NCBI RefSeq assembly: GCF_019063845.1
Contig: NZ_CP077683.1
Location: 4,208,501-4,272,500, forward strand
Length of the DNA stretch: 64,000 bases
Origin: Geomonas subterranea
GTDB lineage: Bacteria > Desulfobacterota > Desulfuromonadia > Geobacterales > Geobacteraceae
Direction of reading: 5' to 3'
Shown here: positions 1-18,619 of the stretch, one piece after another
Layout of the letters: every line of letters begins with the position of its first letter
How positions within the stretch are numbered: position 1 is the first letter of the stretch
Translations under genes and position numbers: made by a program
The notes under the pieces: generated by a model
What the model saw: only the letters and a program-made list of their open reading frames with translations
Told to the model about the DNA's origin: nothing
The model's database searches: none

Positions 1-1576
1 AGCCGACCAGGTCGTCGGCGAGGATGGGGACCCGCACCTCCAGCCCGTGCGCCATGCTGGTGCGGTCCACCTTGGCCAGCACCGAGGGGAGGTGGAACTG
101 GATGTCGGCTTGTTGACGTGCCCCCAAAGATGAACGCGTTTTTGACGCCTCTCCAATGAGAGCGGCGTATTCCGCCACCGGGTCCGAGCCGGAGAGGGCC
201 GACTGCAACCCGGGTGAGAAAATCCTGTTTTTCAGTGCGTTGCCGCAGATCCTGCGGAAGGTGGCGTGGTCCCGGTCAGGCCCCTCGGCCGCCGCGTCAA
301 GAATCCGTTCCACCAGGATGCGCGCGCCATAGCGCTGACTGTCGGAGGGGAGGAAGCGGGCAAGGGAGCGGACGGCGTCGCGCAGCGGCGCGGGTAGGCG
401 CCGGATGAGCGGGGTAAGCTCGCCGGCGAGGTAGGTGTCGTAGCCGGCCAGGAGCTCGTCGCCGCCGTCCCCGGCCAGGATCACGGTCGCTTCCTTGCGT
501 GCGAAGGCGCAGAGCTGGTGCATGGGGAAGAGCGAGGCGTCGGCCAGAAGCTCCCGCATGCTGGCGAGCGTATCCCGGATGGTCTCCTCGTTCCATTGAA
601 AGCGCACCACCCGGTGCTCGATCCCCAGGTGCCGGGCGTAGTCGGCCGCGGCGGGGCTTTCGTCGAAGCCCGCCTCGTCGAAGGCGAGGGTGAAGGCGGT
701 AGGGCGCAGGCCGGCGCGGGTAGCCGAGCGGGCCACGGCGTAGGAGTCCAGCCCCCCGGAGAGGAAGAGCCCGAGCGGCGCGTCGGAGACGGTCTGGGCG
801 GCCACGGCGCGGTCGAGCCGGGCGCGGAACTCCGCCACGCGCTCTTCCTGCGCGGCCGTCTTACCGGCTTCGCAAGGGGACTGGCCCCTGGCGGAGCCAG
901 TCCCCGCCGGGCGCCAGAAGCGCTTCAGCTCGGTGCGTGCGGGGGTGGCCTTCAAAAGGGTGCCGGGGGGGAGCTGGCGCACCCCGGCGAGCCCGGTGCG
1001 GGGCGCGGGGAGGTAGTTGAAGGTGAAGTAGCTGTCGAGATCGCAGGGATCGTGGGGCGGCACCGGGTTCAGGGGGCCGAACAGGGCGAGCAGTTCCGAG
1101 GCGAAGAAAATCTCGCCCCCTTTGTCCTGGTAGAAGAGCGGCTTGATGCCGAGCGGGTCGCGCGCGAGCCACAGCGTCCGCTCGTAGCGGTCGGCCACGG
1201 CGAAGGCGAAGATGCCGTCCAGGCGTGACAGTGCAGCCTCACCCCACTGTACCCAGGCCGCCAGGAGCACCTCGGTGTCGGTACGGGTCGTGAAGCTGTG
1301 TCCCAGCGCCTGGAGCTCGGCGCGCAGCTCGCGGAAGTTGTAGATCTCGCCGTTGTAGGTGATGAGGTACCTGCCGTCGGGGGAGGGCATCGGCTGGCGC
1401 CCGGCCTCCGACAGGTCGAGGACGGCCAGGCGGGCGTGCCCGAAGAAGAGCCCCGGCTCCAGGTGCATCCCCTCGCCGTCCGGGCCGCGGTGGCGCACCC
1501 GCCCCAGCATGGCGGCGAGCCCGGCGCGGTCCCACTCCCCCTTGCCGGGGGCGTATATGCCGACAATGCCGCACAT
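1..1576 (-). CDS. asnB: Asparagine synthetase (glutamine-hydrolysing), AsnB family, 3' end cut by window edge
   Basis: Glutamine-dependent amidotransferase that amidates a carboxylate using ATP. The reading frame opens with MCGIVGIYAP, so the processed protein would start with the catalytic Cys2 of the N-terminal Ntn glutaminase domain. GRYLITYNGE and TDTEVLLAAW follow, then the ATP-PPase motif LFLSGGLDS near residue 272. About 525 codons are visible and the C-terminus lies beyond base 1. It is the last visible gene of the nonulosonate operon, about 100 bp after the radical SAM gene, so it may amidate a glycan or peptide carboxylate rather than make free asparagine (inference). Oddity: a palindromic repeat (about 873-906) lies in frame and encodes residues of roughly 223-235 in the linker between the two domains. 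Confidence 0.93.
   Translation of the reverse strand, partial: MCGIVGIYAPGKGEWDRAGLAAMLGRVRHRGPDGEGMHLEPGLFFGHARLAVLDLSEAGRQPMPSPDGRYLITYNGEIYNFRELRAELQALGHSFTTRTDTEVLLAAWVQWGEAALSRLDGIFAFAVADRYERTLWLARDPLGIKPLFYQDKGGEIFFASELLALFGPLNPVPPHDPCDLDSYFTFNYLPAPRTGLAGVRQLPPGTLLKATPARTELKRFWRPAGTGSARGQSPCEAGKTAAQEERVAEFRARLDRAVAAQTVSDAPLGLFLSGGLDSYAVARSATRAGLRPTAFTLAFDEAGFDESPAAADYARHLGIEHRVVRFQWNEETIRDTLASMRELLADASLFPMHQLCAFARKEATVILAGDGGDELLAGYDTYLAGELTPLIRRLPAPLRDAVRSLARFLPSDSQRYGARILVERILDAAAEGPDRDHATFRRICGNALKNRIFSPGLQSALSGSDPVAEYAALIGEASKTRSSLGARQQADIQFHLPSVLAKVDRTSMAHGLEVRVPILADDLVG
873..906. repeat. Family A palindrome (REP-like) inside asnB
   Basis: An inverted repeat with arms GGGGACTGG / CCAGTCCCC enclosing GGCGGAG. 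It is the same element found in intergenic DNA at 9993, 29393, 31634, 52779 and 62302. Here it is translated in frame as part of AsnB. Confidence 0.8.
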
Positions 1577-1678
1577 CGCTCAGCCCCGTTTCGGTCCGCG
1601 CAGGGACCGGGGCCGGGGCGCTAACGGTGGCGCGGCGATGTTGCAGGGGTGCAGGTTCATGTGGTTTCCTTTCCCGGA

Positions 1679-3184
1679 CTAGCGGAACCTGGAGGTGAAA
1701 AAGTTGAAGGCGGCGGATTCGAGCAGCAGGGCGGAAATGCCGTGGCGAACGCGCAGCCGCGCGAAAGGCGCGTAGAAGAGCGCCAACAGGCGGGTGATCC
1801 TGAACTTCAACGTGTTGCCGGTGTCGACCTTGTTGATCTTGCCGTCGATGAAGTAGGAGCAGATCTGGATCATCCTGATCTCACGTTCCTGCTGTTCACT
1901 GTACCAGGGGGGAGTGTAATCCCCTTCGGCCTCGATTTCCACCCAGTCCTCCAGCCGCTGCGGCTTGCGGTAGCCGCTTTGCACGGCGAGCGCGTAAAGC
2001 TCGGTGCCCGGCAGGGGGCGGTACTTGTTGGGAATGAAGATGAGGGCGCTCGCGTTGTCGTCGATGAGACGCATCATCAGTTCCCTGGTGAGCCTCAGGT
2101 CCTCCATGGTTTCCCCGGGGATCCCCACCAGCCAGTTGTAGGCCGCCTTGATCTCGGGGTGCCGGGCCAGCTTCCGGTTCACCTCGACGATCTGCTCCAC
2201 GGTGCAGTCCTTGTGCATAAGGTCGAGCATCCGCTGGGAGCCGGACTCGGCGCCGATGTGGAGGATGTTGGTGCCGGCCTGGGCCAGCTTGGTCAGGTAG
2301 GCGTCGCTCATGCGCACGATCTCGTTGATGCGCGCCCCGCGGAAACCGAGCCCCACCTTGATGCCGCGGCGCTGGATCTCGTCGATCACCTGCTCCACGT
2401 GTTCGAGGTTCACAAAGGAGTCGTCGTCGATGAAGTAGATGTAGGTGGCGCCGTACTTCTGGTGCACGAACTGGACGTGGTCGGCGACGTGCGCGGCGGG
2501 GAGGTGGCGGTACTTCTGCGCCATGTCCCGGTACTGGGCCGGCGAGGAGCAGAAGGCGCAGCGGTAGGGGCAGCCGAGCGCGCTGTACATGGGGAAGATC
2601 CGCTCGCTGCTGTCCAGTTGCCCGTAGTGGCCGAGGTCCTGCTCGACCAGGTGGTAGGGGATGTCGCGGTAGTCCACCATCTCGAAGCTCGCCTCGGGGG
2701 GGACCTCGCGCACCCCGCTTCCCGTGCGATACATGAGCCCGGGGATGGCGTCGAAGGGGGGGGCGTCCGCGTCGCCCCGCAGGCGCCTGGCCAGCCGGGA
2801 GAGCGGCAGCGAGCCGTACCCCTTGATGACGAAGTCGATGCTCGGCTCGTCGAAGACCTCCAGGGCGTTGAAGGTGGTATGCGGGCCGCCCCACGCGACC
2901 GGGAGGTCCGGGTGCTCGGCTTTGAGCCAGCGCGAGATCTCCAGCGCGTTCTTGATGGGGGGGCCGGTCATGACGCTCAGGCCGACCAGGAGGGTCTCCT
3001 CGGTGACCAGGCGGGCGATGTCCTCGTGCCAGGTGGCGGGGGAGAGGCGGACATCGACGATGTCGACCCGTATCCCGCTCTTGATGGTGTCAACCGCCGC
3101 GTACAGCACGCTCAGGGGCAGGTGGCGCACCAGGACGCTCCCCGCCATCCCCATCTTCGGGTATACCAGGACGACGTTCTTCAT
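1679..3184 (-). CDS. B12-binding-domain radical SAM protein
   Basis: Predicted radical SAM enzyme of 501 residues. The first ~150 residues look like a cobalamin-binding Rossmann fold (MKNVVLVYPKMG start, later VAWGGPHTTFNALE). The radical SAM core carries the iron-sulfur motif GCPYRCAFCSSP (CxxxCxxC) near residue 204, followed by IYFIDDDSF and GAESGSQRMLDLM strands. The classical DxHxxG cobalamin motif is not obvious, which is common in this class. It overlaps the upstream methyltransferase by 4 bp (ATGA-type junction), so the two are probably translationally coupled. Members of this family methylate or rearrange unactivated carbons or act on lipids and sugars; a role in modifying the nonulosonate or its carrier is inferred from context. 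The substrate is unknown. Confidence 0.85.
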   Translation of the reverse strand: MKNVVLVYPKMGMAGSVLVRHLPLSVLYAAVDTIKSGIRVDIVDVRLSPATWHEDIARLVTEETLLVGLSVMTGPPIKNALEISRWLKAEHPDLPVAWGGPHTTFNALEVFDEPSIDFVIKGYGSLPLSRLARRLRGDADAPPFDAIPGLMYRTGSGVREVPPEASFEMVDYRDIPYHLVEQDLGHYGQLDSSERIFPMYSALGCPYRCAFCSSPAQYRDMAQKYRHLPAAHVADHVQFVHQKYGATYIYFIDDDSFVNLEHVEQVIDEIQRRGIKVGLGFRGARINEIVRMSDAYLTKLAQAGTNILHIGAESGSQRMLDLMHKDCTVEQIVEVNRKLARHPEIKAAYNWLVGIPGETMEDLRLTRELMMRLIDDNASALIFIPNKYRPLPGTELYALAVQSGYRKPQRLEDWVEIEAEGDYTPPWYSEQQEREIRMIQICSYFIDGKINKVDTGNTLKFRITRLLALFYAPFARLRVRHGISALLLESAAFNFFTSRFR

Positions 3185-4158
3185 TGTTCTCCCTTCACTC
3201 CCACGAAGAAGAATTCGGTGGACTGCAAAACTCCCAGCTCGACCAGGCGCGCGTCCATGTCGCGCAGGTAGCGGGCCAGGGCGCGGTTCTTTTCCTCGTC
3301 GAACCTGAGCCCGCCGATGAACTCGTGGAAGAAGGCGTAGCGCTCCTTAAGGACCAGTTCCTTGAACGTGCCCGACAGCGCCTTATGCATCTCGCGGAAG
3401 CCTGCCTCGTTGTCGTTGGGGGACTGGAGCTTCTCTGCATCCTCGGTCTCGTAGCGCATGTTGGCGAAGAGCTTGCCGATCTCACCCTCGACCGCCTCGG
3501 GCGCCGGGACCGGGAAATCGGCGTGGAAGCCGTTGCCGGCGGACAACAGGGTCCTGAGCAGGTGGCAGAAGGCGGCGTTGCCCCGGGTGACCCGGTCGCG
3601 GGTCGGCTCGTGGGCGATCACGATGCCCCCGACGCGCAAGAGCTCTCTGACCCGCGCCATGACGCTTGCCTGGTCCGGGAAGTGGTGCAGCGCGCCGAGG
3701 AAGACTACCGCATCGAAGCTCCCGACGGCAAGCCCGGGATGTGCGAACAGGTCGCCGGAGAGGTAGGCGAGGCCGCCGCGCTCCCCCCGCCAGGGGTCCT
3801 CGTCGGCCATGCGGCGCGCCACCTCGATGCAGGCGGGGGAAAGGTCGATCCCGGTGACGTGGTGGCCGGCGCGGGAGAGCTCCAGGCTGAGGTAGCCCGG
3901 GCCGCAGCCGATTTCCAGGACGCGGGCCGCGCGCTCACCGAGCTGGTCGCGCAGGGTCTTCTCGATCAGCTCGAACTGTTCGTAGAAGTCGAGCTTCACG
4001 TAGGCCGGGTCGCGCCAGGGGTTGTTGATGAACCACTCGCAGCGCGGCGCCCGGCGCAGGTCCGGGATGTGGCCGTGGGCCATCCTCTCGTGGATCTGGT
4101 GGTTGAAGGCCCGGGCCTCCTCCTCCAGCACCGCCGCTTCACCGCGCTCAGTAGACAT
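3181..4158 (-). CDS. Class I SAM-dependent methyltransferase
   Basis: 325 residues with a canonical Rossmann SAM-binding motif I, VLEIGCGPGYLSLEL (around residue 95). GIDLSPACIEVARR supplies the acidic ribose-binding residue, and the motif II/III strand SFDAVVFLGALHHF follows. The N-terminal extension (about 80 residues) and C-terminal ~100 residues do not match a family I can name. The start overlaps the 3' end of the amidotransferase gene by 11 bp and the stop overlaps the radical SAM start. It is therefore an internal gene of the sugar operon, probably acting on the glycan or a precursor. The substrate cannot be read from sequence. Confidence 0.85.
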   Translation of the reverse strand: MSTERGEAAVLEEEARAFNHQIHERMAHGHIPDLRRAPRCEWFINNPWRDPAYVKLDFYEQFELIEKTLRDQLGERAARVLEIGCGPGYLSLELSRAGHHVTGIDLSPACIEVARRMADEDPWRGERGGLAYLSGDLFAHPGLAVGSFDAVVFLGALHHFPDQASVMARVRELLRVGGIVIAHEPTRDRVTRGNAAFCHLLRTLLSAGNGFHADFPVPAPEAVEGEIGKLFANMRYETEDAEKLQSPNDNEAGFREMHKALSGTFKELVLKERYAFFHEFIGGLRFDEEKNRALARYLRDMDARLVELGVLQSTEFFFVGVKGEQ

Positions 4159-5359
4159 GGTGGCGCAGCCTCCATTCCCCGTTCACCTGCTCCCACAGGT
4201 GCGGCGAGCGCGCCTTGTCGATCACCTCCCAGAAGCGCTCCTCGGTGATCCCCATGTACTCCAGGATCTCGTGGAAGTACTTGGCCGGGAACTCGGCGTC
4301 GTAGCGCTTCACCAGGGCGACCGCCTCCTCGCGGGTGATCTTCTGGTTGCGCACCTCCTGGGCCGCGTCGTAGGTGGCCCGGCCGATACCGAACTTGATG
4401 AAGGTGGTGTAGTAGTGCAGGGGATCGATGCGGTCGTCGATGGAGCTGTACTTGGAGTACGACCCCTCGGTGCGCTCCACGTTGACCTGGAAGCCGGTGT
4501 GCTCGGAGGCGTAGTAGTAGCACTCCTGCGGGTCCCACTTCAGGTAATACCCGAGATAATGCACCTCGGTCCCCACCTCGCGCAGCACGTTGCCGTCGAT
4601 GGGGAGGTACGGGTTCAGGTCGCGCGGGTCGACCTGGTACTGCGAGATCAGGTCGCGGGCCGAGACGCCCCCCAGGAACAGCGAGTCGAGGTCGCGGGTG
4701 GTCTCGAAGAAGGAGGGGGCCATGGTGGGGCGGTCGTTCTCCTTGATGTTGTTGCCATACTCGGCCTGGTTCTCGCCGTAGAAGACCAGCGGGATCCGGT
4801 ACAGACCCGAGAAGCGGGGACCGATCAGGCGCTGCCCGATGATGAAGGGCTGGAAGGGGTGCACCAGGTTTTCGAAGGCGAGCCGGGTCAGCAGCCGGTG
4901 CAGCTTGCCGTTGGGGGTGTAGAGGATGTTGTCCAGGCCGGAGTGGATCCAGTTCTGGAAGTTGTGCCAGCCGATCTCGGTGTACTTGTGCGGCGCCCAG
5001 GTCACGGTGAGCGGGTTCATGCCGTACTTGTACTTGAGGATGTGGGCGGTGAAGGCGCTGTCCTTGCCGCCGCTCCCCGGCACGATGCAGTCGTAGCCGC
5101 CGTCCTTGCTCCGGTGCCGGTTGCAGAGCTCGATCAGCTCCTCCTCGCGCGTCTTCCAGTCGATGACCTTTTCTTTCATGTCGGCGAAGGTGCAGGCGCT
5201 GCAGACACCCTCCTCGTCGAACTCGATGGTCGGCTTCTTCTCGGTGCCGCGGTTCTTGAACTCCACCACGGAACTCGGGCGCTGGTTGGAGATCACGCAG
5301 CGCTTGCAGAACTTCACTTCTTCGGGCAGGCCGTAGTAGGCCTCGAGATGCTCGCTCAT
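4148..5359 (-). CDS. N-acetyl sugar amidotransferase (WbpG/PseA-like PP-loop enzyme)
   Basis: 403 residues. It shows two Cys pairs near the N-terminus (FCKRCV and GVCSACTF, likely a zinc site) and an ATP-PPase loop GSGGKDSAF around residue 97, the signature layout of the WbpG/PseA/LegA family. These enzymes convert an N-acetyl group of a sugar to an acetamidino group, using ammonia supplied by a HisH/HisF pair in the O-antigen example of Pseudomonas. Here the dedicated HisH and HisF paralogs are encoded immediately upstream in the same operon, which supports that three-component reaction. A repeat-filled gap of 160 bp separates it from hisH2. Start ATG is preceded by GGGGAAATATAG. The exact sugar amidated is inferred from the neighbouring nonulosonate genes. 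Confidence 0.9.
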   Translation of the reverse strand: MSEHLEAYYGLPEEVKFCKRCVISNQRPSSVVEFKNRGTEKKPTIEFDEEGVCSACTFADMKEKVIDWKTREEELIELCNRHRSKDGGYDCIVPGSGGKDSAFTAHILKYKYGMNPLTVTWAPHKYTEIGWHNFQNWIHSGLDNILYTPNGKLHRLLTRLAFENLVHPFQPFIIGQRLIGPRFSGLYRIPLVFYGENQAEYGNNIKENDRPTMAPSFFETTRDLDSLFLGGVSARDLISQYQVDPRDLNPYLPIDGNVLREVGTEVHYLGYYLKWDPQECYYYASEHTGFQVNVERTEGSYSKYSSIDDRIDPLHYYTTFIKFGIGRATYDAAQEVRNQKITREEAVALVKRYDAEFPAKYFHEILEYMGITEERFWEVIDKARSPHLWEQVNGEWRLRHHVY

Positions 5360-5400
5360 CTATATTTCCCCTTTGCAGTCAGCGTGGTCAGTTTTAGAAG

Positions 5401-5510
5401 TCCCCCCTTCCCCCGCGGGAGGGGGTTAGGGGGTGGGGGTAGGTGCCACGTTGGTGCTAATGGCAGGTTCACCCACCCCCCAGCCCCCTCCCGTCAAGGG
5501 AGGGGGAGAG
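5401..5510. repeat. Family C MITE-like inverted-repeat element, copy 1
   Basis: About 110 bp with pyrimidine- and purine-rich hairpin ends. The left end contains CCCCGCGGGAGGGGGTTAGG and the right end CCCCCTCCCGTCAAGGGAGG, around a short core GGTGCCACGTTGG. The reverse complement matches 20896-21005 along nearly its whole length. It fills the gap between hisH2 and the amidotransferase gene. Confidence 0.75.
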
Positions 5511-5520
5511 TTGGAAACGG

Positions 5521-6153
5521 CTAGCGGCAGCTCTCCACCCAGGCGGAGAGGATGCCGAGGCCCGCGCCGCCGCTCTTCTCCGGGTGGAACTGGCAGCCGG
5601 TGATGTTGCCGCGCTGCACGGCTGAGACGAAGTTGTACCCGCCGAAGTCGGTGATTGACAGGATGTCGCTCTCTTCGGCCGGCACCGCGGCGTAGCTGTG
5701 CACGAAGTACATGTCCTCGCCCGGCCGCACCCCGGCGAAGGGGGTCCCGTCCCAGCGCCCGGGCTGCGGCGGCAGGATGCCGTTCCACGCCATGTGCGGG
5801 AGCTTCGCCACCGCCGGCAGGAGCTTCACCTCGCCGGACAGCAGGGCAAGGCCGGCGGTGACGCCGAACTCCTCGCCCCGGTCGAAGAGGAGCTGCATGC
5901 CGAGGCAGATGCCGATCATCGGCTTGCCCCCGGCCGCGTACTCCCTGATGCAGTCGATGAGCCCGCACCCGGTGAGGCGCTCCATGCCGGAAATGAAGGA
6001 ACCGACTCCCGGGAGCACCAGCCCGTCCGCGGCCAGGAGTTCGGACGGCTCGCGGGTCAGCATCGGCTCGCCGCCGACCTTCTCCACACCGTTCACGATG
6101 CTCCTCACGTTTCCCAGCCCGTAATCTACTATGGCTATGCCCGGTTTTTTCAT
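5521..6153 (-). CDS. HisH paralog, glutamine amidotransferase of the sugar-amidination system
   Basis: 210-residue class I glutaminase resembling imidazole glycerol phosphate synthase subunit HisH. The catalytic triad is present: Cys in GICLGMQLLF and His-Glu in CQFHPEKS; the oxyanion region PGVGSF is also conserved. The true histidine-pathway HisH is encoded separately at 34118-34741, so this copy is specialised. By analogy with HisH2 of Pseudomonas B-band O-antigen clusters it should hydrolyse glutamine and channel ammonia through the HisF paralog to the amidotransferase encoded next. The start MKKPGIAIVDYG overlaps the upstream hisF2 gene by 4 bp. A longer upstream open frame exists but runs through the hisF2 gene and is rejected. 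Confidence 0.9.
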   Translation of the reverse strand: MKKPGIAIVDYGLGNVRSIVNGVEKVGGEPMLTREPSELLAADGLVLPGVGSFISGMERLTGCGLIDCIREYAAGGKPMIGICLGMQLLFDRGEEFGVTAGLALLSGEVKLLPAVAKLPHMAWNGILPPQPGRWDGTPFAGVRPGEDMYFVHSYAAVPAEESDILSITDFGGYNFVSAVQRGNITGCQFHPEKSGGAGLGILSAWVESCR

Positions 6154-6905
6154 GGACGTACCTGGACCCCTCCGGCGAGAAGGGCCTCCTTGATCTGGCC
6201 CACACCCGCCAGGTTGTAGTGCAGGATGGACGCGACGGCGACGGCGTCGCAGGCGGTCTTTTGGAACAGGTCGAGGACGTGGCCGCAGCTGCCGATGCCG
6301 CCGCAGCCGATCACCGGGATGCCGGCGTCCTTGGCCGCCGCCTGCAGCAGCTGCAGGTCGCACCCCTTCTTGGTCCCCTCGGTGTCCACCGAGGTCACCA
6401 GGAGCTCGCCCGCCCCCAGCTCCTCCAGCTCGCGGCACCAGGAAAGGGCGTCCTTGCCGGTATGCTCGCGGCCGTTGTCGCAGTAGGACTCCCAGGCGGT
6501 GCCGTGGCGCTTGGCCTCCACCGAGGCCACGATGCACTGCGAGCCGAAGGTGCGCACCGCCTCCGCGATGAACTGCGGCGTCTTGACCGCCTGGGTGTTG
6601 ATGGCCACCTTGTCGGCCCCCGCCTTCAGCGAGCGCTCGATGTCCTGCATGGTGCGGATGCCCCCTCCGACGGTGATGGGGACGAAGACGTCCCGGCAGG
6701 AGCGCTCGATGATGTCGAACAGGTTGTTGCGCCCGTAGAGGCTCGCCACCGCGTCCATGAAGAGGATCTCGTCGATGCGCTCTTCGTAGTACTTCACGGC
6801 CAGGTCGTGCGGGTCGCCGATCTTGCGCACCCCTTCCAGGTGGATCCCCTTGATCACGAACTCGTTCTTGATGTCGATCCTGGCGATCAATCGCTTCTTG
6901 ATCAT
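6150..6905 (-). CDS. HisF paralog, TIM-barrel partner of HisH in sugar amidination
   Basis: 251-residue (beta-alpha)8 protein related to HisF. It keeps the first catalytic Asp (ARIDIKNEFVIKG) and the phosphate-binding loops ITVGGGIRT and VIGCGGIG. In HisF the second catalytic Asp lies in VVAIDAR (seen in the authentic HisF at 35739-36497), but here the equivalent strand reads VASVEAK, an Asp-to-Glu change. This suggests it no longer performs the histidine cyclase step and serves as an ammonia conduit (inference). Start ATG follows GGAGGC on the minus strand. It overlaps legG by 4 bp and hisH2 by 4 bp, so the three are co-translated. Confidence 0.9.
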   Translation of the reverse strand: MIKKRLIARIDIKNEFVIKGIHLEGVRKIGDPHDLAVKYYEERIDEILFMDAVASLYGRNNLFDIIERSCRDVFVPITVGGGIRTMQDIERSLKAGADKVAINTQAVKTPQFIAEAVRTFGSQCIVASVEAKRHGTAWESYCDNGREHTGKDALSWCRELEELGAGELLVTSVDTEGTKKGCDLQLLQAAAKDAGIPVIGCGGIGSCGHVLDLFQKTACDAVAVASILHYNLAGVGQIKEALLAGGVQVRP

Positions 6906-8035
6906 GCCGCCTCCGGGTGGTCGGCGAAGCGCTTCTGCACGCTCACTTCCCAAAGGCGCGGGTCCTTCAGAAGGTTCACGAACTGTTCGGTGCTGTTGCC
7001 GTTGCCGAAGTGGGTGGAGCGTTCGCCGCGCTGGGTGGCGCACTGCCCGATGGCCTCCAGCACCTCGACGCGCGACTCATGCACGTTGAGGATGCAGCCG
7101 CTGTGGCACCTGCCGTCCTGCCTGGTGCCGATGTTGATGGAACAGACCCCGTAGAAGGGCGCCTCGCGCACCGCGGCGCTCGAGTTGCCGATCATGAAGT
7201 CGGCGTGCTTCAAAAGGACCAGGAAGGCCTCGAAGCGCACCGAGGGGAAGATGCGGAAGTGCGGGTTCCCCCTGAGCGCCTCCAGCTCCTCGATGATGAT
7301 CTCGGAGCCGGGGTCGTTGTTCGGGTAGATCACCACGTAGTCGCGTTCCGATTCCAGGAGCGCCGCCTTCACTTCCTTCACCTTGGCCAAGAGGTTGTGG
7401 AGGCTCGTGGTGACCGGGTGGTAGGTGAAGATGCCGTAGTGCTCGAAGGGGATCTCGTAGCGCTCCTTCACCTCGGCGAGGGAGGGGAGCGCGTCCGACA
7501 TCATGAGGTCGAGGTCCGGGGATCCGATGCTGAAGATGTTGCCCCCGGGCTCTCCCATCCGCATCAGGCGCGCCTTGGCCTCGTCGTTGGCCACGAAGTG
7601 GAGATGGGCCAGCTTCGAGATGGAGTGGCGGATCGATTCGTCGATGGTGCCGGAGACCTCGCCCCCTTCGATGTGGGCCACCAGGATGTTGTTGAAGGCC
7701 CCCACGATGGCGCCGGCCAGTGCCTCGGCTCGGTCCCCGTGGATCACCATGAGGTCGGGCTTGGTCAGGTCGACGTAGTTGGAGAGCCCTTGGATGGTGT
7801 TGGCCAGGATGTTGTCCATGGAGTCGTTGGACTTCTGGTTGATGAACTTGAAGATGCGCTGGAAGCCGGCCTTCTCCACCTCGTCGCCGGTGTTGCCGTA
7901 CTTGGGGAGGACGTGCATGCCGGTGACGAAGACGTGCACCTCGAAGCCCTCCTCGCGGTCCAGGGCGTGCATCAGGGACTTCAGTTTGCCGAAGTCGGCG
8001 CGGGTCCCGGTGAGAAAGAGTACCTTCCTAGCCAT
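6902..8035 (-). CDS. legG: Hydrolysing UDP-N-acetylhexosamine 2-epimerase (NeuC/LegG family)
   Basis: 377 residues beginning MARKVLFLTGTRADFGKL, the characteristic start of hydrolysing 2-epimerases of nonulosonate pathways. HIEGGEVSGTIDESIRHSIS supplies the conserved His and Glu, and NSSAAVREAPFYG the C-terminal UDP-binding loop. Expected reaction: UDP-diacetamidobacillosamine (or UDP-GlcNAc) to a free mannose-configured sugar plus UDP, the substrate of the next enzyme. The upstream in-frame extension is ignored because MARK matches the family start. It overlaps legI by 8 bp. Legionaminate rather than sialate is favoured because the amidinating genes are linked, but sequence alone cannot settle the substrate. 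Confidence 0.9.
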   Translation of the reverse strand: MARKVLFLTGTRADFGKLKSLMHALDREEGFEVHVFVTGMHVLPKYGNTGDEVEKAGFQRIFKFINQKSNDSMDNILANTIQGLSNYVDLTKPDLMVIHGDRAEALAGAIVGAFNNILVAHIEGGEVSGTIDESIRHSISKLAHLHFVANDEAKARLMRMGEPGGNIFSIGSPDLDLMMSDALPSLAEVKERYEIPFEHYGIFTYHPVTTSLHNLLAKVKEVKAALLESERDYVVIYPNNDPGSEIIIEELEALRGNPHFRIFPSVRFEAFLVLLKHADFMIGNSSAAVREAPFYGVCSINIGTRQDGRCHSGCILNVHESRVEVLEAIGQCATQRGERSTHFGNGNSTEQFVNLLKDPRLWEVSVQKRFADHPEAA

Positions 8036-9065
8036 TGTCGATCTGCTCCCATGCCAGTTGGCGGTCCGCCTTGAGCGCGACCTTGGCCTTTTTGCCGAGC
8101 ACCGTCTCGAAGTGCTCCGCCTTGATTTCACCGGTCCCCGGGCGTTTCACCCAGATGTTGTCGTAGCTGAAGGTCTCCCCCGCCGCGATGTCCCGGATGG
8201 TGACGATGCAGGCGTAGGCGAAGTCGATGGTGGGCTGCTCCTCGGGGAGCACCCCCTTCCGCCCGCCGCGCGCAAGGAAGATGGCGCGGCTCCCCTCGAT
8301 GAGCTCTTTCAGCTCGACGGGGTCCATGGAGATCTCGATATCCGGCCCGGGCCACCCCTTGTCGGAGGTGAAGTGCCGCTCCAACAGCGAAGCCCCGAGC
8401 GCAACCGCGCCCAGGCAGGGGTAGTTGCTGAGCGAATGGTCGGAAAGGCCGACCGGGACCCCGGGGAAGGCCTCCTGCAGTTCGGCCAGCGCGCCCAGGC
8501 GCACCTTGTCGTAGGGGGTGGGGTAGATGCTGGTGCAGTGCATGAGCGCGAAGGGGACCCGGTGCTTCTCGAGGATGGCGACCGAGCGGGCGATGTTCTC
8601 CATGGGGTTCATCCCGGTGGAGAGGATCACGGGCTTGCCGTAGCGGGCGATGTGCTCGACCAGCGGGTAGTTGTTGCACTCCCCCGAACCGATCTTGTAG
8701 GCGGGAACATTGAGCTTTTCCAGCTGCACCGCGGCCGCGCGCGAGAAGGGGGTGCTCAGGAAGATGATCCCCTTCCCCTCGACGTAGCGTTTCAGCTCCG
8801 CTTCCTCGGCCGCGGTGAGGGCGCAGCGCTTCATGATGTCCCAGATCGACTCCTTGGCGTTCCCCGGGATGACGTCATTCGGGATCATCTCGTCCTCGAT
8901 GACGTGGGTCTGGAACTTCACGCATTCGCAGCCGGCCGCGGCGGCGTCGTCCACCATACGGATCGCCTTCTCCAGGCTCCCCTCGTGGTTGATGCCGATC
9001 TCCGCCAACACCAGCGGGGGATGGTTCGCGCCGACCTTGCGTCCGGCGATGTCGAATTCTCTCAT
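8028..9065 (-). CDS. legI: Nonulosonic acid synthase (NeuB/LegI family)
   Basis: 345 residues. The N-terminal NeuB TIM barrel shows LAEIGINHEGSLEKA, CVKFQTH, YKIGSGECNNYPL and GLSDHS, the conserved PEP- and metal-binding elements. The last ~60 residues form an SAF (antifreeze-like) domain (IAAGETFSYDNIWVKRPG). It condenses PEP with the 2,4-diacetamido-mannose-type product of the epimerase to make the nine-carbon acid. Start ATG has AGAGGATAAGC upstream. It begins 2 bp after the legF stop, giving a compact operon order synthetase-synthase-epimerase. Confidence 0.95.
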   Translation of the reverse strand: MREFDIAGRKVGANHPPLVLAEIGINHEGSLEKAIRMVDDAAAAGCECVKFQTHVIEDEMIPNDVIPGNAKESIWDIMKRCALTAAEEAELKRYVEGKGIIFLSTPFSRAAAVQLEKLNVPAYKIGSGECNNYPLVEHIARYGKPVILSTGMNPMENIARSVAILEKHRVPFALMHCTSIYPTPYDKVRLGALAELQEAFPGVPVGLSDHSLSNYPCLGAVALGASLLERHFTSDKGWPGPDIEISMDPVELKELIEGSRAIFLARGGRKGVLPEEQPTIDFAYACIVTIRDIAAGETFSYDNIWVKRPGTGEIKAEHFETVLGKKAKVALKADRQLAWEQIDNG

Positions 9066-9067
9066 GC

Positions 9068-9781
9068 TTATCCTCTTTTCTCCTGCATCCGGTGGGTCAT
9101 GAGCAGGTCGGCGATCAGGAAGTCCAGTTCGCTGTCAATGTCCAGCGAGCGCTCCGCGGGCATCAGGTAGGGCACCATGTTCTTGGGGTAGAAGGTGCGC
9201 TCCTCCAGGAAGACCCCGATTTTGATGACGTAGATGGCGCCATTGAAGCGGTACAGCTTCTCGCTCTCCTGGCGCCTGGTGATGTAGGGAGTGGAGCCGA
9301 TCTCCTTCAGCAAACCATCCTCGCCGATGCGCCTCAGCCACTGCGGCGGGCGCTCGTTGTCGGTGACGCTGACCACGGAGTCGGCGTCCTTCTCGCGCTG
9401 CAGGGCGAGCGCCCGGTCGATATCACCGGCGGTACGAAACGGGGAGGTGGGTTGCAGCAGGAGGATGAGGCGCGGGCGGTACCCTTCGTGCTCCGCGAGC
9501 CAGTCCAGGGTGTGCCGTACCGCCGCCTCCGAGGTCGCCGTGTCGCCGGCGAGCTCGGCCGGGCGCAGGAAGGGAACCTCGGCGCCGCTGGCCTTGCCGG
9601 CCGCGGCTATCTCGGGGTCATCCGTGGAGAGAACCAGCTTGAGAGGGGTCTGCGCGTTGAGGGCCGCCGCCGCGCTCCAAGCCAGCAGCGGCTTCCCCGC
9701 CAGGGGGCGTACGTTCTTGCGCGGGACTCCCTTGGAGCCGCCGCGGGCGGTGATCAGGGCCAGGATTTCGCTGACTGCCAA
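9068..9781 (-). CDS. legF: CMP-nonulosonate cytidylyltransferase (NeuA/LegF family)
   Basis: 237 residues with the nucleotide-binding signature ALITARGGSKGVPRKN at the N-terminus. Further CMP-sugar synthetase elements are LLQPTSPFRTAGDIDRAL and SVVSVTDNERPPQWLRR. It activates the nonulosonate with CTP for transfer by a glycosyltransferase. I choose the TTG start at 9781 because AGGAAGGAGA lies just upstream and the following residues (AVSEILALITARGG) match the family; the ATG further upstream has no ribosome site and adds a basic, non-family tail. It is the first gene of the operon and is preceded by a perfect sigma-54 promoter site. Confidence 0.92.
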   Translation of the reverse strand: MAVSEILALITARGGSKGVPRKNVRPLAGKPLLAWSAAAALNAQTPLKLVLSTDDPEIAAAGKASGAEVPFLRPAELAGDTATSEAAVRHTLDWLAEHEGYRPRLILLLQPTSPFRTAGDIDRALALQREKDADSVVSVTDNERPPQWLRRIGEDGLLKEIGSTPYITRRQESEKLYRFNGAIYVIKIGVFLEERTFYPKNMVPYLMPAERSLDIDSELDFLIADLLMTHRMQEKRG

Positions 9782-9887
9782 GTGGCTCTCCTTCCTGTCG
9801 TTAATTTGACTCCGGGGGGAGGTAAGCACTCCTCTCCGGCCGTTGGATGATGTCGCTGCGTGCTCTTTTGGTGCGGCAATCCAAATT

Positions 9888-9903
9888 TGCAACGGACGTG
9901 CCA
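9888..9903 (-). promoter_or_regulatory. Sigma-54 promoter of the nonulosonate operon
   Basis: On the minus strand the sequence is TGGCACGTCCGTTGCA, a complete match to the -24/-12 consensus TGGCAC-N5-TTGCA with GG and GC 10 bases apart. The predicted start point is about 96 nt before the legF TTG start. Confidence 0.8.
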
Positions 9904-9992
9904 GAGAGGAGGTGGTGTGCTAACGGGTGGGAAACGCGGGGCTTTTTCGAAAGGCGGGTTGGCGGTCAAAAAGTTGACCGCAGCAGTGCGCT

Positions 9993-10024
9993 AGGGGACA
10001 GGCTCTGCAGGTGCCTGTCCCCTT
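9993..10024. repeat. Family A palindrome between the triple-domain glycosyltransferase and legF
   Basis: AGGGGACAGGCTCTG followed by CAGGTGCCTGTCCCCTT, an inverted repeat of the dispersed GGGGAC...GTCCCC family. It lies directly behind the stop of the glycosyltransferase gene and could act as a 3' hairpin. Confidence 0.75.
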
Positions 10025-10027
10025 CGA

Positions 10028-12373
10028 TCAGGGCCGGCGCTCCAGGTTCAGGCGGAGGCGGGTCGGTCGCAGCGGTGGCGGCGGCGTCTCCCGCGGGCGG
10101 ATGCGCCGGTCGGCCGGGTCCTTGCGGCACAGGATGTTGTAGGCGAACTCCCGCTCCGGTTCCGCGCCGGTCCCTTGCCGCAACACCGCGAAGGTGAAGG
10201 GGTCGATGGGGACCTGCTCCAAGGGGGCGGGACGGTTGAGCGGAGCCCCTTCCCGGCGCAGATGGTCCATGAGGAGGGAAGCGGTGCAGCGGTCGCCCCG
10301 GGCCACCACCCTGAAGGAGTGCAGCGCCATGGCGCCCGGCTTAAGCATCCGCTCCACGTCGCGCACGATGCTGCGGCACCCTTCCTCGGAATGCTGCAGT
10401 TCTCCGCACTCTCCGACGCTGAAAACGAAGTCGAAATAGTTCCCCGGGAGCAATTCGCTGAAGCCCCCGATCTCCCCGTCCACCAGCCTGATCCCGTACA
10501 CGGGGCGCTGCAGCAGGTCCGCGCTTTCGGTGCGCAGCCGGTCCAGGTTCCACATCTCGTACTCCTGCTCCAAGGCGCGCACGATTCCCGAGGTACGGCT
10601 TCCGAAACTGAGGATCCTTGCCCCCTTCGGGATGTTGTCCCTGATGAAGGAGCAGATCAGGAGTTCCTGGTATCCCTTCAGGTCGCAGTCGGAGGGGCGG
10701 CTGCTCCCGGAGAGGCCCGCCGCATTCCTCTCGAACCAGGGGAAGTGGAGGCGCCTGGAATAGGTGAAGAAGCCGAAGTTTTCCGGCGTGATGCGGCTGC
10801 CGGCGCGACGCACCACCTCGGCCACCTGCAGGGGCGGGGGAGGAGGCTCCAGCGTCTGCGCCCCTTGCGCCCCAAAGAGATGCCGCTCCCGGATCACGAC
10901 CCGCTCGGCCTCCTGGTTGTAGCGCTCCAGGTGGGCCTCCGAGCGCTGTCCCTCGCCGGGCCGGCTCCGGAACCCGCCCAGTGGCGCATGCAGCGTGTAC
11001 AGCCGTGCGTGGCGGAAAAAGCGGGCCCACAGTTCCAGGTCCCCGGCGAGGGCAAAGTCGGGATCGAGCCCCCCCGCCTTGTCCCAGAGGCTGCGGCGCC
11101 AGAAGGTCGACTCCTGCTGGATGAATGGTGCGTTGACCTCGCCGCGCAGGTATTTCTCGCGGCTCCAGGCCGGCGGCTCCGAGGAAAACCCGGCCGCCTT
11201 GCCGTCGCTGTCCCAGAGCGTGGGGCTGCCGGTGAGCCACTCCACCTCGGGACAGCCGAGGAAAGCATCGCCGACCAGGTGCAGCGCGCCGGGGTGGTAC
11301 TTGTCGTCGGAGTTGATCCAGGCGAGCACCTCGCCGGTGGCGCGCCGGAAACCCTCGTTGATCGCGGCGTAGTGCCCCCCGTCCGGGCGGCTCTGCCAGT
11401 AGGAGAGATGCTTTTCGTACTTCTTGATGATCTCGATCGAACCGTCGCTGCTGCCCCCGTCCATGACGATGTACTCGAGATTCGGGTACCCCTGGCTCAG
11501 CACCGAGTCGAGGCATTCCGCCAGGTATTCGCCCTGGTTGTAGGAGGGAGTGACGATGGAGAGCCGCGGCAACTGGCGTGGCACGATGACGCTTGGGGGC
11601 GAGAAGTCCCGGATCGGGTAGCGGATCAGCGGCGGCGCGCTGGAGCGGTGCGGCTCGGCGGGGAGTTGCAGGGCAAGTTCCCGGTCGATCACCTTCTTGC
11701 ACTCGTCCATGTACTGGTCGCGGTGCTTGTTGCAGCGCTGCTCCGAGCTGTACATCCTGAACCCGCCGGTGAGCGCGTCCACAGAGTACAGAGGGGAGAG
11801 ACGGCTCATGCGCATCCAGAGGTCGAAGTCGGCGGCGAGCTTGTACTCGATGTTGAGGGCGCCCCCGGCGCGGTCCCAGAGGCTCCTGCGCCAGTAGGTC
11901 CCTTCCTGCATCACCATGAGGCAGTAGCCGTACAGGAGTTCCTCGCTCAGCATCTGGTCGTGGCACCAGGTCTGGGTCATGTACTCGAAGGGGTGCAGCT
12001 TCCCGTCGCCGTCGAAGCCGACCCTCCTGCCGGTCAGAAACTCGACGTGCGGCAGCTTGTCGAACACCTCCCCCACCACGGTAAGACCCCCCTTGTGCAG
12101 CATGTCGTCCGCGTTCAGCCATCCCATGACCGGCCTGGTCGAGCGCTTGAAGCCGGCGTTCAAGGCCTGGTAGTGGCCGCCGTCCGGCGCGCTCTGCCAG
12201 TAGGCAAGGTACTTCTCGTACTTCCTGATGATCTCCACGGAGCCGTCGGTGCTGCCGCCGTCCATGATGATGTATTCCAGGTCGGGATAGTTCTGGCTCA
12301 GGATGGAATCGATGCACTGCTCCAGGTACGTGGCCTGGTTCAGGGAGGGGGTGACTATGGTGATACCTTGCAT
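10028..12373 (-). CDS. Tandem GT2 glycosyltransferase with C-terminal methyltransferase-like domain
   Basis: 781 residues in three parts. Domain 1 (about 1-230) is a GT-A family 2 transferase: MQGITIVTPSLNQATYLEQC, IIMDGGSTDGS and MGWLNADDM. Domain 2 (about 265-500) repeats it: LSIVTPSYNQGEYLAECLDS, IVMDGGSSDGS and LAWINSDDK. The two halves are clearly an internal duplication. The C-terminal part (about 575-720) has a degenerate SAM-methyltransferase look (GARILSFGSRTSGIVRAL, FDFVFSVGECGELQHS). It could add two residues of the glycan in succession. It sits upstream of the nonulosonate operon under its own sigma-54-like site. Start ATG at 12373 has AAGGACGATAC upstream. Confidence 0.85.
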   Translation of the reverse strand: MQGITIVTPSLNQATYLEQCIDSILSQNYPDLEYIIMDGGSTDGSVEIIRKYEKYLAYWQSAPDGGHYQALNAGFKRSTRPVMGWLNADDMLHKGGLTVVGEVFDKLPHVEFLTGRRVGFDGDGKLHPFEYMTQTWCHDQMLSEELLYGYCLMVMQEGTYWRRSLWDRAGGALNIEYKLAADFDLWMRMSRLSPLYSVDALTGGFRMYSSEQRCNKHRDQYMDECKKVIDRELALQLPAEPHRSSAPPLIRYPIRDFSPPSVIVPRQLPRLSIVTPSYNQGEYLAECLDSVLSQGYPNLEYIVMDGGSSDGSIEIIKKYEKHLSYWQSRPDGGHYAAINEGFRRATGEVLAWINSDDKYHPGALHLVGDAFLGCPEVEWLTGSPTLWDSDGKAAGFSSEPPAWSREKYLRGEVNAPFIQQESTFWRRSLWDKAGGLDPDFALAGDLELWARFFRHARLYTLHAPLGGFRSRPGEGQRSEAHLERYNQEAERVVIRERHLFGAQGAQTLEPPPPPLQVAEVVRRAGSRITPENFGFFTYSRRLHFPWFERNAAGLSGSSRPSDCDLKGYQELLICSFIRDNIPKGARILSFGSRTSGIVRALEQEYEMWNLDRLRTESADLLQRPVYGIRLVDGEIGGFSELLPGNYFDFVFSVGECGELQHSEEGCRSIVRDVERMLKPGAMALHSFRVVARGDRCTASLLMDHLRREGAPLNRPAPLEQVPIDPFTFAVLRQGTGAEPEREFAYNILCRKDPADRRIRPRETPPPPLRPTRLRLNLERRP

Positions 12374-12449
12374 GTATCGTCCTTATCCCGTGGGTGGCGC
12401 TCGTGCTGCAGAGGGACGGCTGTGTCGCCGTGGCCGGTCCTGGGAAGTT

Positions 12450-12465
12450 TGCAGTTAACATGCCA
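12450..12465 (-). promoter_or_regulatory. Candidate sigma-54 promoter of the tandem glycosyltransferase gene
   Basis: Minus-strand TGGCATGTTAACTGCA. GG and GC are separated by exactly 10 bases, with two departures from the consensus. The predicted leader is about 66 nt. Confidence 0.6.
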
Positions 12466-12502
12466 CGAGCCCGGGGAGCGCTGTCAGAATAGGCGTGCGA
12501 CG

Positions 12503-12529
12503 CCTCCCCCTCCCTTGACGGGAGGGGGC
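12503..12529. repeat. Family C hairpin, single arm
   Basis: CCCCCTCCCTTGACGGGAGG and flanks match one end of the family C element. It lies between the DUF1566 protein and the tandem glycosyltransferase. The rest of the 295-bp gap shows the sigma-54 site but no gene. Confidence 0.6.
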
Positions 12530-12668
12530 AACGGCAGCTTCCAGCACCCGGCCGCGCCGCCGGTACCTGCTACTTCGTGCCTGGCGCCCTCGTTAAAAAA
12601 GGGTCACCGCCTGTGGCAGTAACCCTTCTTCACTTATTACAGCAACAAACCCGCTACATCTTAATCGT

Positions 12669-14747: not shown

Positions 14748-14856
14748 GGTCAGGCGCCTCCTTATCTCATGATGACTGCTGTTGCTGTGACTAAGGTAGT
14801 GACTGGACAAGGAACGGCTGAACAAGGCGCCAAATAGAAGTTGACGCATCTTTGTC

Positions 14857-14872
14857 GGCAATTCGCATGCCA
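14857..14872 (-). promoter_or_regulatory. Candidate sigma-54 promoter of the DUF1566 protein gene
   Basis: Minus-strand TGGCATGCGAATTGCC keeps TGGCA, TTGC and the 10-base GG-GC spacing. The predicted start point lies about 99 nt upstream of the GTG start at 14747. Confidence 0.6.
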
Positions 14873-15259
14873 CCAGGGGTAACCCTTAAAAAACAGCAGG
14901 TTGTGTTCTCGGGGATGGTGGTTCAACGGCAAAACACCGCAGAATTGTGCAAATATTGCACAGCGGAATTGTTCAGGTGATGCGCAGTGGGAAGCGGCGA
15001 TTGCCGCCAGTAATGGGTGAAATGCGGGAGTGAATGGAAGGATTCGGCCTCCCCCGCCTCGGACCCGCAAAGTCTCTGGGAGGATTGAAGGTTCTTGCTC
15101 ATACTAGAAGTCGGGGGGGATGGGGGCGCCCCGGAACCCGGCAGAGCGAACGCGCCGGGGACTGCTGCATGGCGGGACAGGGTTGATCGGCAGTTAATGC
15201 ACCAGTGATGGTACTCCTTTTGAGGGCAGGGGAGGCAAGGGGGAGCGGGAAAATGAAAA

Positions 15260-18603: not shown

Positions 18604-18619
18604 AGCAACTGCCATGCCA
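18604..18619 (-). promoter_or_regulatory. Candidate sigma-54 promoter of the GT2-TPR gene
   Basis: Minus-strand TGGCATGGCAGTTGCT: only one base departs from TGGCAC-N5-TTGCW and the GG-GC spacing is right. It lies in the otherwise gene-free 298-bp gap 18519-18816. Confidence 0.65.

What the first reader, a model, noticed from the sequence alone, without database searches (positions are those of the whole stretch)
1..9903. A sigma-54-driven operon for an amidinated legionaminic-type sugar
The operon legF-legI-legG-hisF2-hisH2-amidotransferase-methyltransferase-radical SAM-asnB has overlapping starts and stops and a perfect sigma-54 site (9888-9903). Known families: NeuA/B/C analogues build a CMP-nonulosonate; WbpG with HisH2/HisF2 installs an acetamidino group. 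Added to these are a B12-type radical SAM protein, a methyltransferase and an AsnB, which are not standard for legionaminate and suggest extra modification. The early steps (LegB, LegC, LegH) are not in the window.
Basis: partly seen in the sequence, partly recalled or inferred. Interest (0 to 1): 0.78.

Follow-up and report, generated by a model that had tools for sequence, protein, structure and literature searches.

The report
Operon for an amidinated sialic acid
A Geomonas-like bacterium carries, near its flagellin gene, an operon that most likely makes ordinary sialic acid and turns its acetyl group into a charged amidine; the same pairing of genes recurs in distant bacteria, and our searches found no description of that sugar.

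Summary
The operon and its perfect sigma-54 site are real. The site (9888-9903, minus strand; 0.05 expected in the window) is also perfect in Geomonas paludis although spacer and flanks differ. Amidination is well supported: the amidotransferase scores 541.6 bits against a solved Legionella N-acetyl-sugar amidotransferase, and a paralogous HisF/HisH pair accompanies it.

LegB, LegC and a LegH-like gene lie about 305 kb away, inside a legionaminate locus with its own LegG, LegI and LegF. The window's synthase is instead 58% identical to N. meningitidis sialic acid synthase and keeps its sugar-site signature. Of 80 loci with such a synthase, 0 have a close LegC in the flanks held; 18 have the amidotransferase, and 14 of the 17 such genomes searched lack both LegB and LegC above cut-off. 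Best reading: CMP-Neu5Ac amidinated at N5, perhaps methylated, probably for flagellin. The methyltransferase belongs with the sugar (a synthase-methyltransferase fusion exists); the radical SAM protein and AsnB may not. All reactions are inferred from sequence.

The parts
9888..9903 (-). sigma-54 (-24/-12) promoter, TGGCACGTCCGTTGCA
   Evidence: only exact match in window, expected 0.05; perfect site at the same place in G. paludis with different spacer and flanks
9068..9781 (-). CMP-nonulosonate synthetase (NeuA type), 237 aa, TTG start
   Evidence: PF02348 71 bits; PseF model TIGR03584 152.7 bits, below its cut-off 205.7; two paralogues in the genome at 37% and 36%
8028..9065 (-). sialic acid synthase (NeuB/SiaC type), 345 aa
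   Evidence: 434 bits to N. meningitidis SiaC 1xuu; 194 of 336 aligned residues identical; signature residues kept; fails TIGR03569 cut-off, 367 vs 399.65
6902..8035 (-). hydrolysing UDP-GlcNAc 2-epimerase (NeuC type), 377 aa
   Evidence: TIGR03568 406.7 bits vs 235.9 (the legionaminate-locus enzyme passes this model too); best solved match human GNE 197 bits, diNAcBac epimerase 189
6150..6905 (-). HisF2-type ammonia channel subunit, 251 aa (not histidine synthesis)
   Evidence: below the cut-offs of the HisF, WbuZ and AglZ/HisF2 models; true hisF at window 35739-36491; Glu at the position I take for catalytic D130 (role of D130 recalled); start
5521..6153 (-). HisH2-type glutaminase subunit, 210 aa
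   Evidence: TIGR01855 191.5 vs 105.4; motifs GICLGMQ and HPE present (roles recalled); start and stop
5403..5506 (.). REP-like palindrome between hisH2 and the amidotransferase gene
   Evidence: inverted repeat; 5 core copies in the window vs 0.01 expected; core pattern absent from L046
4148..5359 (-). N-acetyl sugar amidotransferase (WbuX class), 403 aa
   Evidence: TIGR03573 364 vs 203; 541.6 bits to 8WEX; tetracysteine and SGGKDS loop present
3181..4158 (-). nonulosonate-linked SAM methyltransferase (MT1), 325 aa
   Evidence: PF08241 70 bits; homologues in 8 of 80 synthase loci; fused to NeuB in L104
1679..3184 (-). B12-binding radical SAM protein, 501 aa
   Evidence: PF04055, PF02310; CPYRCAFC motif; none of the 25 NCBIfam models listed reaches its cut-off, best BchE 118 vs 481
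1..1576 (-). AsnB-type glutamine amidotransferase, cut by the window edge (638 aa in the genome)
   Evidence: TIGR01536 389.8 vs 267.1 for the whole protein; Cys2 present
10028..12373 (-). double GT2 glycosyltransferase upstream of the promoter; probably the same island
   Evidence: PF00535, two stretches; 86% orthologue in the same place in G. paludis (L022)

Best explanation
The operon makes CMP-N-acetylneuraminic acid and amidinates it. NeuC converts UDP-GlcNAc to ManNAc, NeuB joins ManNAc and phosphoenolpyruvate to Neu5Ac, and the NeuA-type enzyme makes CMP-Neu5Ac. HisH2 releases ammonia from glutamine, HisF2 passes it on, and the amidotransferase activates the 5-N-acetyl group with ATP (AMP + PPi) so that ammonia replaces its oxygen, giving a 5-acetamidino neuraminic acid. 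MT1 probably methylates this sugar (amidine N or a hydroxyl). The product is carried to flagellin or a flagellin-linked glycan, perhaps by the Maf-like protein further along the gene run; a sigma-54 promoter would tie expression to flagellar genes. Shown here: gene content, order, promoter motif and its conservation, family and residue matches, co-occurrence. Inferred: every reaction, the substrate, the order of steps, RpoN dependence, flagellin as acceptor.
For: NeuB: 434 bits to N. meningitidis SiaC, against 174 for the legionaminate-locus synthase LegI_6. D61, E62, P72, G73, N74, A75, T285, F288 (SiaC numbering) are kept; LegI_6 differs at all eight, and the leg-cluster synthases L024-L026 at seven or eight (A75 shared by L024 and L026). 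Region 70-85 is the published C4-C6 specificity zone (passages of PMC7371886); the other positions were picked from recall. Tree of 94 rows: SiaC lies with the window NeuB in an 80-row group (95/84) that excludes the leg-cluster synthases. NeuC: GNE 197 vs diNAcBac epimerase 189; the legionaminate-locus enzyme is clearly the latter, 322 vs 207. Neighbourhoods: LegC-like at 45% or more in 0 of 80 loci; LegB at 45% or more beside 2 of 58 window-type NeuC and 7 of 12 legionaminate-type NeuC, Fisher p = 2e-5, not corrected for relatedness. LegC above cut-off in 0 of 6 phylum relatives' genomes. Amidotransferase in 18 of 80 loci; of the 17 such genomes searched, 15 lack LegC and 14 lack both LegB and LegC above cut-off, among them Sporomusa sp. 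KB1, Microcystis elabens and G127 (98% complete; its only NeuB match is this one). Amidotransferase: 541.6 bits to 8WEX.
Against: Residue 184 is Ser, while PMC7371886 reports Asn or Tyr for sialate synthases and Ser for pseudaminate ones; Ser is found in 79 of 80 relatives. The window NeuB fails the NCBIfam 'N-acetylneuraminate synthase' cut-off while the legionaminate-locus one passes. LegB-like genes at 45% or more sit beside 10 of 80 relatives and at 54-59% beside 5 of 6 phylum relatives; one with LegB at 73% keeps the full signature (L101), so this type may also take 6-deoxy substrates. NeuC scores hardly discriminate (197 vs 189). LegB and LegC exist in this genome and in G. paludis, so borrowing is possible. 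Fifteen of the 17 genomes carry no stated completeness and most are MAGs. In one search, 3 of 24 genomes have LegC above cut-off and 7 more have only weaker LegC-like matches (up to 374 bits, cut-off 420). Two pairs among the 18 loci (L065/L068, L076/L094) are nearly alike under different phylum labels, so the phylum spread is partly doubtful.
Confidence: 0.62

Rival explanations
1. Amidinated legionaminate: the operon borrows UDP-diNAcBac made by LegB/C/H of the other locus and duplicates LegG, LegI and LegF for flagellar use.
For: LegB and LegC are above cut-off in this genome and in G. paludis. The amidotransferase's solved relative is from Legionella. Three order relatives have the amidotransferase trio inside leg clusters (L024-L026; some L024 frames are broken).
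Against: The other locus has its own LegG/I/F. The window NeuB differs from the leg-cluster synthases at the sugar-site positions, and 14 of 17 searched genomes with the same pairing lack LegB and LegC above cut-off.
Confidence: 0.17
2. A 9-deoxy mono-N sugar of fusaminic type, amidinated, as in F. nucleatum 25586 LPS; a dehydratase encoded elsewhere would feed NeuC a 6-deoxy sugar.
For: 5-acetimidoylamino-3,5,9-trideoxy-nonulosonate is named in a reference title. SiaC-type NeuB sits beside LegB and PtmE matches, with no LegC match in the flanks, in L101, L107 and L112.
Against: No dehydratase or ketoreductase in the operon; adjacent LegB at 45% or more in 1 of 18 amidinating loci (L053), though distant SDR matches (26-29%) occur in 6 more; NeuC is the window type in 15 of 18, the legionaminate type in 1, not seen in 2.
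Confidence: 0.1
3. Plain sialic acid; the amidination genes act on another sugar of the island glycan.
For: NeuABC-type loci without amidotransferase are common among the 80. WbuX-type enzymes also act on other sugars (WbpG, passage of PMC10607449).
Against: Of the 18 loci with amidotransferase, 16 also hold HisH, 14 HisF and 16 NeuA matches, close together in varied orders; the trio lies inside the operon between NeuC and MT1.
Confidence: 0.11

Closest known systems
Campylobacter/Legionella CMP-Leg5Am7Ac and CMP-Leg5AmNMe7Ac pathway (PtmG, PtmH)
   Same: CMP-nonulosonate core plus amidotransferase and methyltransferase; flagellar use in Campylobacter (passages of PMC3766260 and PMC13317340)
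   Different: the base sugar there is legionaminate, needing LegB/C/H; here NeuB is of the sialate type and no LegB/C/H is in the operon.
Neisseria meningitidis sialic acid synthase SiaC (1xuu) and the bacterial Neu5Ac pathway
   Same: NeuB 58% identical with the sugar-site signature; NeuABC without LegB/C/H
   Different: no amidination there (recalled); residue 184 is Ser here, Asn there
Legionella pneumophila N-acetyl sugar amidotransferase (8WEX)
   Same: 541.6 bits, PP-loop and tetracysteine motif
   Different: its own substrate is not stated in the passages I saw; Legionella makes amidinated legionaminate, whereas the partner synthase here is SiaC-like
F. nucleatum 25586 O-chain 5-acetimidoylamino-3,5,9-trideoxy-nonulosonate
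   Same: amidinated nonulosonate with a single N, at C5
   Different: 9-deoxy and gluco configuration; known to me only from reference titles
Pseudomonas WbpG with HisH2/HisF2
   Same: three-part acetamidino machinery (HisH2/HisF2 part recalled)
   Different: WbpG makes a C-3 group on another sugar residue (passage of PMC10607449)

Membership tests
Legionaminic acid (Leg) pathway | LegB, LegC and LegH with the NeuA/B/C analogues | tested here: not met
   no LegB or LegC above cut-off in the window; the genome's only ones are in L006 about 305 kb away. LegH was not searched genome-wide; a NeuD-type gene is in L006
Legionaminic acid (Leg) pathway | LegI-type synthase, LegG-type epimerase | tested here: not met
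   NeuB groups with SiaC, not with leg-cluster synthases; NeuC not LegG-like by score, a weak result. C. jejuni and Legionella LegI were not available
Neu5Ac (sialate) pathway | NeuA, NeuB, NeuC genes together | tested here: met
Neu5Ac (sialate) pathway | ManNAc-type active site in NeuB | tested here: inconclusive
   8 SiaC positions kept; position 184 Ser deviates; a LegB-linked relative shares the signature (L101)
Neu5Ac (sialate) pathway | activity on UDP-GlcNAc and ManNAc | not testable with these tools
   needs enzyme assay
N-acetyl sugar amidotransferase (NASAT/WbuX) | SGGXDS PP-loop, tetracysteine motif, family score | tested here: met
   Of 19 stretches from the 18 loci (L046 included), 18 show the PP-loop and 15 my tetracysteine pattern; L055 is a fragment, L076, L080 and L094 miss the pattern
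N-acetyl sugar amidotransferase (NASAT/WbuX) | HisF2/HisH2 partners distinct from the histidine pair | tested here: met
   another hisF in the same window scores 393.5 bits against 262.1; the HisH side was not searched
PtmH N-methyltransferase | homology to Cj1325 and N-methylation of the amidine | not tested
   PtmH sequence not obtained; MT1 co-occurs with the amidotransferase in 5 of 8 loci
sigma-54-dependent promoter | TGGCAC-N5-TTGCW at -24/-12, conserved | tested here: met
   RpoN dependence itself not testable
Maf flagellin nonulosonate transferase | PF01973 above cut-off | tested here: not met
   29.1 bits vs 34.6; yet the only PF01973 match in the genome, 2.2e-6

The most novel reading that the evidence does not exclude
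A separate pathway class exists, spread over several phyla, that amidinates true sialic acid: NeuABC of the SiaC type with its own amidotransferase and HisF2/HisH2, giving 5-acetamidino-neuraminic acid (a zwitterionic sialic acid), in some lineages methylated by a dedicated enzyme family (MT1), one member of which is fused to the synthase.
Probability: 0.5. Interest if true: 0.65.

Novelty: new variant of a known kind. Interest (0 to 1): 0.5.

Why it matters
Amidination is reported for legionaminate, pseudaminate (abstract of PMC3068675) and a 9-deoxy nonulosonate (titles). An amidinated Neu5Ac would be a sialic acid whose N-acyl group carries a positive charge beside the carboxylate, which should change recognition by lectins and sialidases (inference). 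The gene signature (SiaC-type NeuB next to this amidotransferase, no LegB/LegC) offers a rule for separating amidinated sialate from amidinated legionaminate clusters, which automatic names can confuse: here the NCBIfam 'N-acetylneuraminate synthase' model passes the legionaminate-locus enzyme and rejects the SiaC-like one.

Tried and rejected
Legionaminate by shared precursors: kept as a rival, not excluded. HisF as the histidine enzyme: rejected (another hisF at 35739-36491 scores 393.5 vs 262.1). Radical SAM as a nonulosonate enzyme: unsupported; 7 orthologues outside the genus (48-62%) gave no NeuB or NeuC match in the 4-20 kb held around each; one (L135) has an AsnB of 60% about 5 kb off. 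Looser sigma-54 sites: no clear excess over chance in the window or L005. E. coli sialate genes as references: no DNA match. Plasmids: 13 records with NeuB relatives, all under 60%, not used. Rfam at gathering thresholds: nothing in 1-15000. MT1 in 395 genomes of the phylum: only the own one (at most 5 candidates per genome scored). Ten paper searches: 'Neu5Am' gave none; 'acetamidino'+'neuraminic'+'sialic' gave 9 papers (43), of which I read passages of one, PMC7371886; 'sugar amidotransferase'+'sialic acid' gave one, seen in the listing only (74); Geomonas+flagell+glycosylation none (45). Not found in print means only these searches of an open-access library. Papers seen as passages: PMC3766260, PMC7371886, PMC10607449, PMC3438082, PMC11339370, PMC12940168, PMC3210612, PMC13317340; none was read whole.
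Full report
Setting. The window is C1:4208501-4272500 of a single 4.99 Mb contig. A named relative with the same operon is Geomonas paludis Red736 (L046), whose contig has the same length as that of unnamed G039 (142147 bases). The genome is therefore most likely a Geomonas (inference).

Observation. The nine genes and the promoter are as described. Five of eight junctions overlap. The 161-nt gap before the amidotransferase gene contains a REP-like palindrome; in G. paludis that gap is 29 nt. The sigma-54 site is the only exact match in the window (0.05 expected), lies 106 nt before the first start codon, and is perfect in G. paludis with other spacer bases and diverged flanks. RpoN dependence is untested.

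Beyond base 1. AsnB ends at C1:4208160. There follow on the same strand a methyltransferase, a second B12 radical SAM protein, a GT2, a membrane protein without a family match, a Maf/MptE-like protein (29.1 bits, cut-off 34.6; the only such match in the genome), an AMP-ligase, and SGNH/GT2, TPR/GT2 and GT41/TPR proteins. A flagellin (PF00669 37.8 bits, cut-off 26.6), FlbT and FlaF lie about 30 kb from the operon start; a fourth gene beside them, which I took for FlaG, matched no Pfam family. This looks like a flagellar glycosylation island; that the operon's product reaches flagellin is inference.

LegB, LegC, LegH. They are about 305 kb away (L006, C1:4523-4531 kb) in the order LegB-LegC-LegG-LegI-LegH-PtmE-PtmF-LegF, with a PtmA-like SDR further on (several names are recalled and rest on similarity and order). 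LegB scores 530.9 bits (cut-off 475) and LegC 553.1 (cut-off 420), each the genome's only match above cut-off. A third set, pseudaminate-like by recalled gene names, is at L007. The genome has three CMP-nonulosonate synthetase matches.

Which sugar? The window NeuB scores 434 bits against N. meningitidis SiaC and is 36% identical to LegI of L006, which itself scores 174 against SiaC. At eight positions (61, 62, 72-75, 285, 288) the window has the SiaC residue and LegI_6 another; L024-L026 differ at seven or eight of these. PMC7371886 (passages) places C4-C6 specificity at 70-85; the other positions I chose from recall. Position 184 is Ser, against the published Asn/Tyr for sialate enzymes. Epimerase: human GNE 197 bits, diNAcBac epimerase 189; for the L006 enzyme 207 and 322.

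Relatives. A scan with the window NeuB gave 93 relatives, of which the best 80, all named, were kept. Annotated by tblastn with my query set, in flanks of up to 10 kb, shorter where contigs end: no LegC homologue at 45% or more (highest 38%); LegB at 45% or more in 10; window-type NeuC in 58 (2 with LegB), legionaminate-type NeuC in 12 (7 with LegB), neither in 10; Fisher p = 2e-5 without correction for kinship. Contrast: in the 12 genomes synthases pass TIGR03569; 6 of them (G000, G039, G049, G064, G080, G105) lie within 1.4 kb of a LegC above cut-off, and the other 2 (G068, G125) within 1.8 kb of one scoring about 360 bits. The three window-type synthases there (G000, G039, G127) have none above cut-off near. 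In the tree (94 rows) SiaC sits with the window NeuB in an 80-row group (95/84), the leg-cluster synthases outside; the bootstrap had not settled and long branches are flagged.

Amidinated sialate loci. An amidotransferase at least 50% identical to the window's is in 18 of 80 loci, G. paludis included: by record title Bacillota (Sporomusa sp. KB1), Cyanobacteriota (Microcystis elabens), Pseudomonadota, Omnitrophota, Nitrospinota, Chloroflexota, Myxococcota and others. Two pairs (L065/L068, L076/L094) look nearly alike under different phylum labels, so some labels are doubtful. On the tree the label needs 14 changes, at least 4 forced by well supported branches. Of the 18, 16 also show NeuA, 14 HisF and 16 HisH (several contigs are short). 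Seventeen of the 18 genomes were searched (L053 was not): LegC above cut-off in 2 (G039, L076), LegB in 3 (G039, L076, L092), neither in 14. Completeness is stated for two of them (G039, G127). By contrast three order relatives have the amidotransferase trio inside leg clusters with legionaminate-type NeuB and NeuC (L024-L026). The amidotransferase thus joins both kinds of core, and the core tells which.

Results against. Five of six phylum relatives of the window NeuB (L041-L045, 58-60% identical) sit beside LegB- and PtmE-like genes; three of them (L041-L043) differ from SiaC at 61, 74 and 285, the other two were not examined. L101, L107 and L112 have LegB at 73% beside the synthase, and L101 keeps the signature. 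No LegC above cut-off was found in the six phylum relatives' genomes, nor a close LegC match in the flanks of L101, L107 and L112. The safest statement is that SiaC-type NeuB goes with sugars that lack the 4-amino group; a 6-deoxy substrate is not excluded by residues alone.

Amidination machinery. The amidotransferase carries the PP-loop and tetracysteine motif described in PMC10607449 (passages) and scores 541.6 bits against 8WEX. That 8WEX acts on legionaminate is my inference. HisF2 is a paralogue of another HisF in the same window, with Glu where that one has Asp.

Methyltransferase MT1. Homologues occur in 8 of 80 loci, 5 of them with the amidotransferase (Fisher p = 0.012, not corrected; the five include the near-identical pairs L076/L094 and L065/L068, so about three independent cases). 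In L104 it is fused to a SiaC-type NeuB in one 672-aa frame. In L069 it lies between NeuB and NeuC with only a 26% amidotransferase match in 21 kb, so it need not act on the amidine. PtmH is the functional precedent (PMC3766260 and PMC13317340, passages); homology was not tested.

Radical SAM and AsnB. Radical SAM orthologues (48-62%) in 7 genomes outside the genus stand in stretches without matches to NeuB or NeuC; one has an AsnB nearby. I read both as enzymes of the remaining glycan; this is weakly supported.

Verdict. A real, conserved operon of known enzyme kinds, in a combination for which my searches found no product described: amidinated sialate. New variant of a known kind.

Noticed in passing
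L006 (C1:4520392-4540391) and L007 (C1:4637531-4657530): The genome holds a legionaminate locus and a pseudaminate-like locus besides the window operon: three nonulosonate sets in one genome.
   Followed up: partly
L104:2833-4851: Sialic acid synthase and MT1-type methyltransferase fused in one 672-aa open frame.
   Followed up: partly
window 5486, 12508, 20901, 20980, 35695: REP-like palindrome CCCTCCC-N5-GGGAGGG, 5 copies (0.01 expected); one lies inside the operon between hisH2 and the amidotransferase gene.
   Followed up: partly
L101, L107, L112: SiaC-type NeuB beside LegB (73%) and PtmE matches with no LegC match in the flanks (two Humidesulfovibrio MAGs and a Proteobacteria MAG); possibly a 9-deoxy mono-N nonulosonate route.
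   Followed up: no
L004:15472-16935 (C1:4205972-4207435): Second B12-binding radical SAM protein in the same gene run, below the window's first base.
   Followed up: no
L029:8875-11275: In G125 the amidotransferase match is in two pieces about 1.3 kb apart; not examined further.
   Followed up: no
window 18604-18619 (-): One-mismatch sigma-54-like site TGGCATGGCAGTTGCT, also present letter for letter at L046:2637-2652.
   Followed up: no
L065/L068 and L076/L094: Pairs of nearly alike clusters in MAGs labelled as different phyla; binning error or recent transfer.
   Followed up: no
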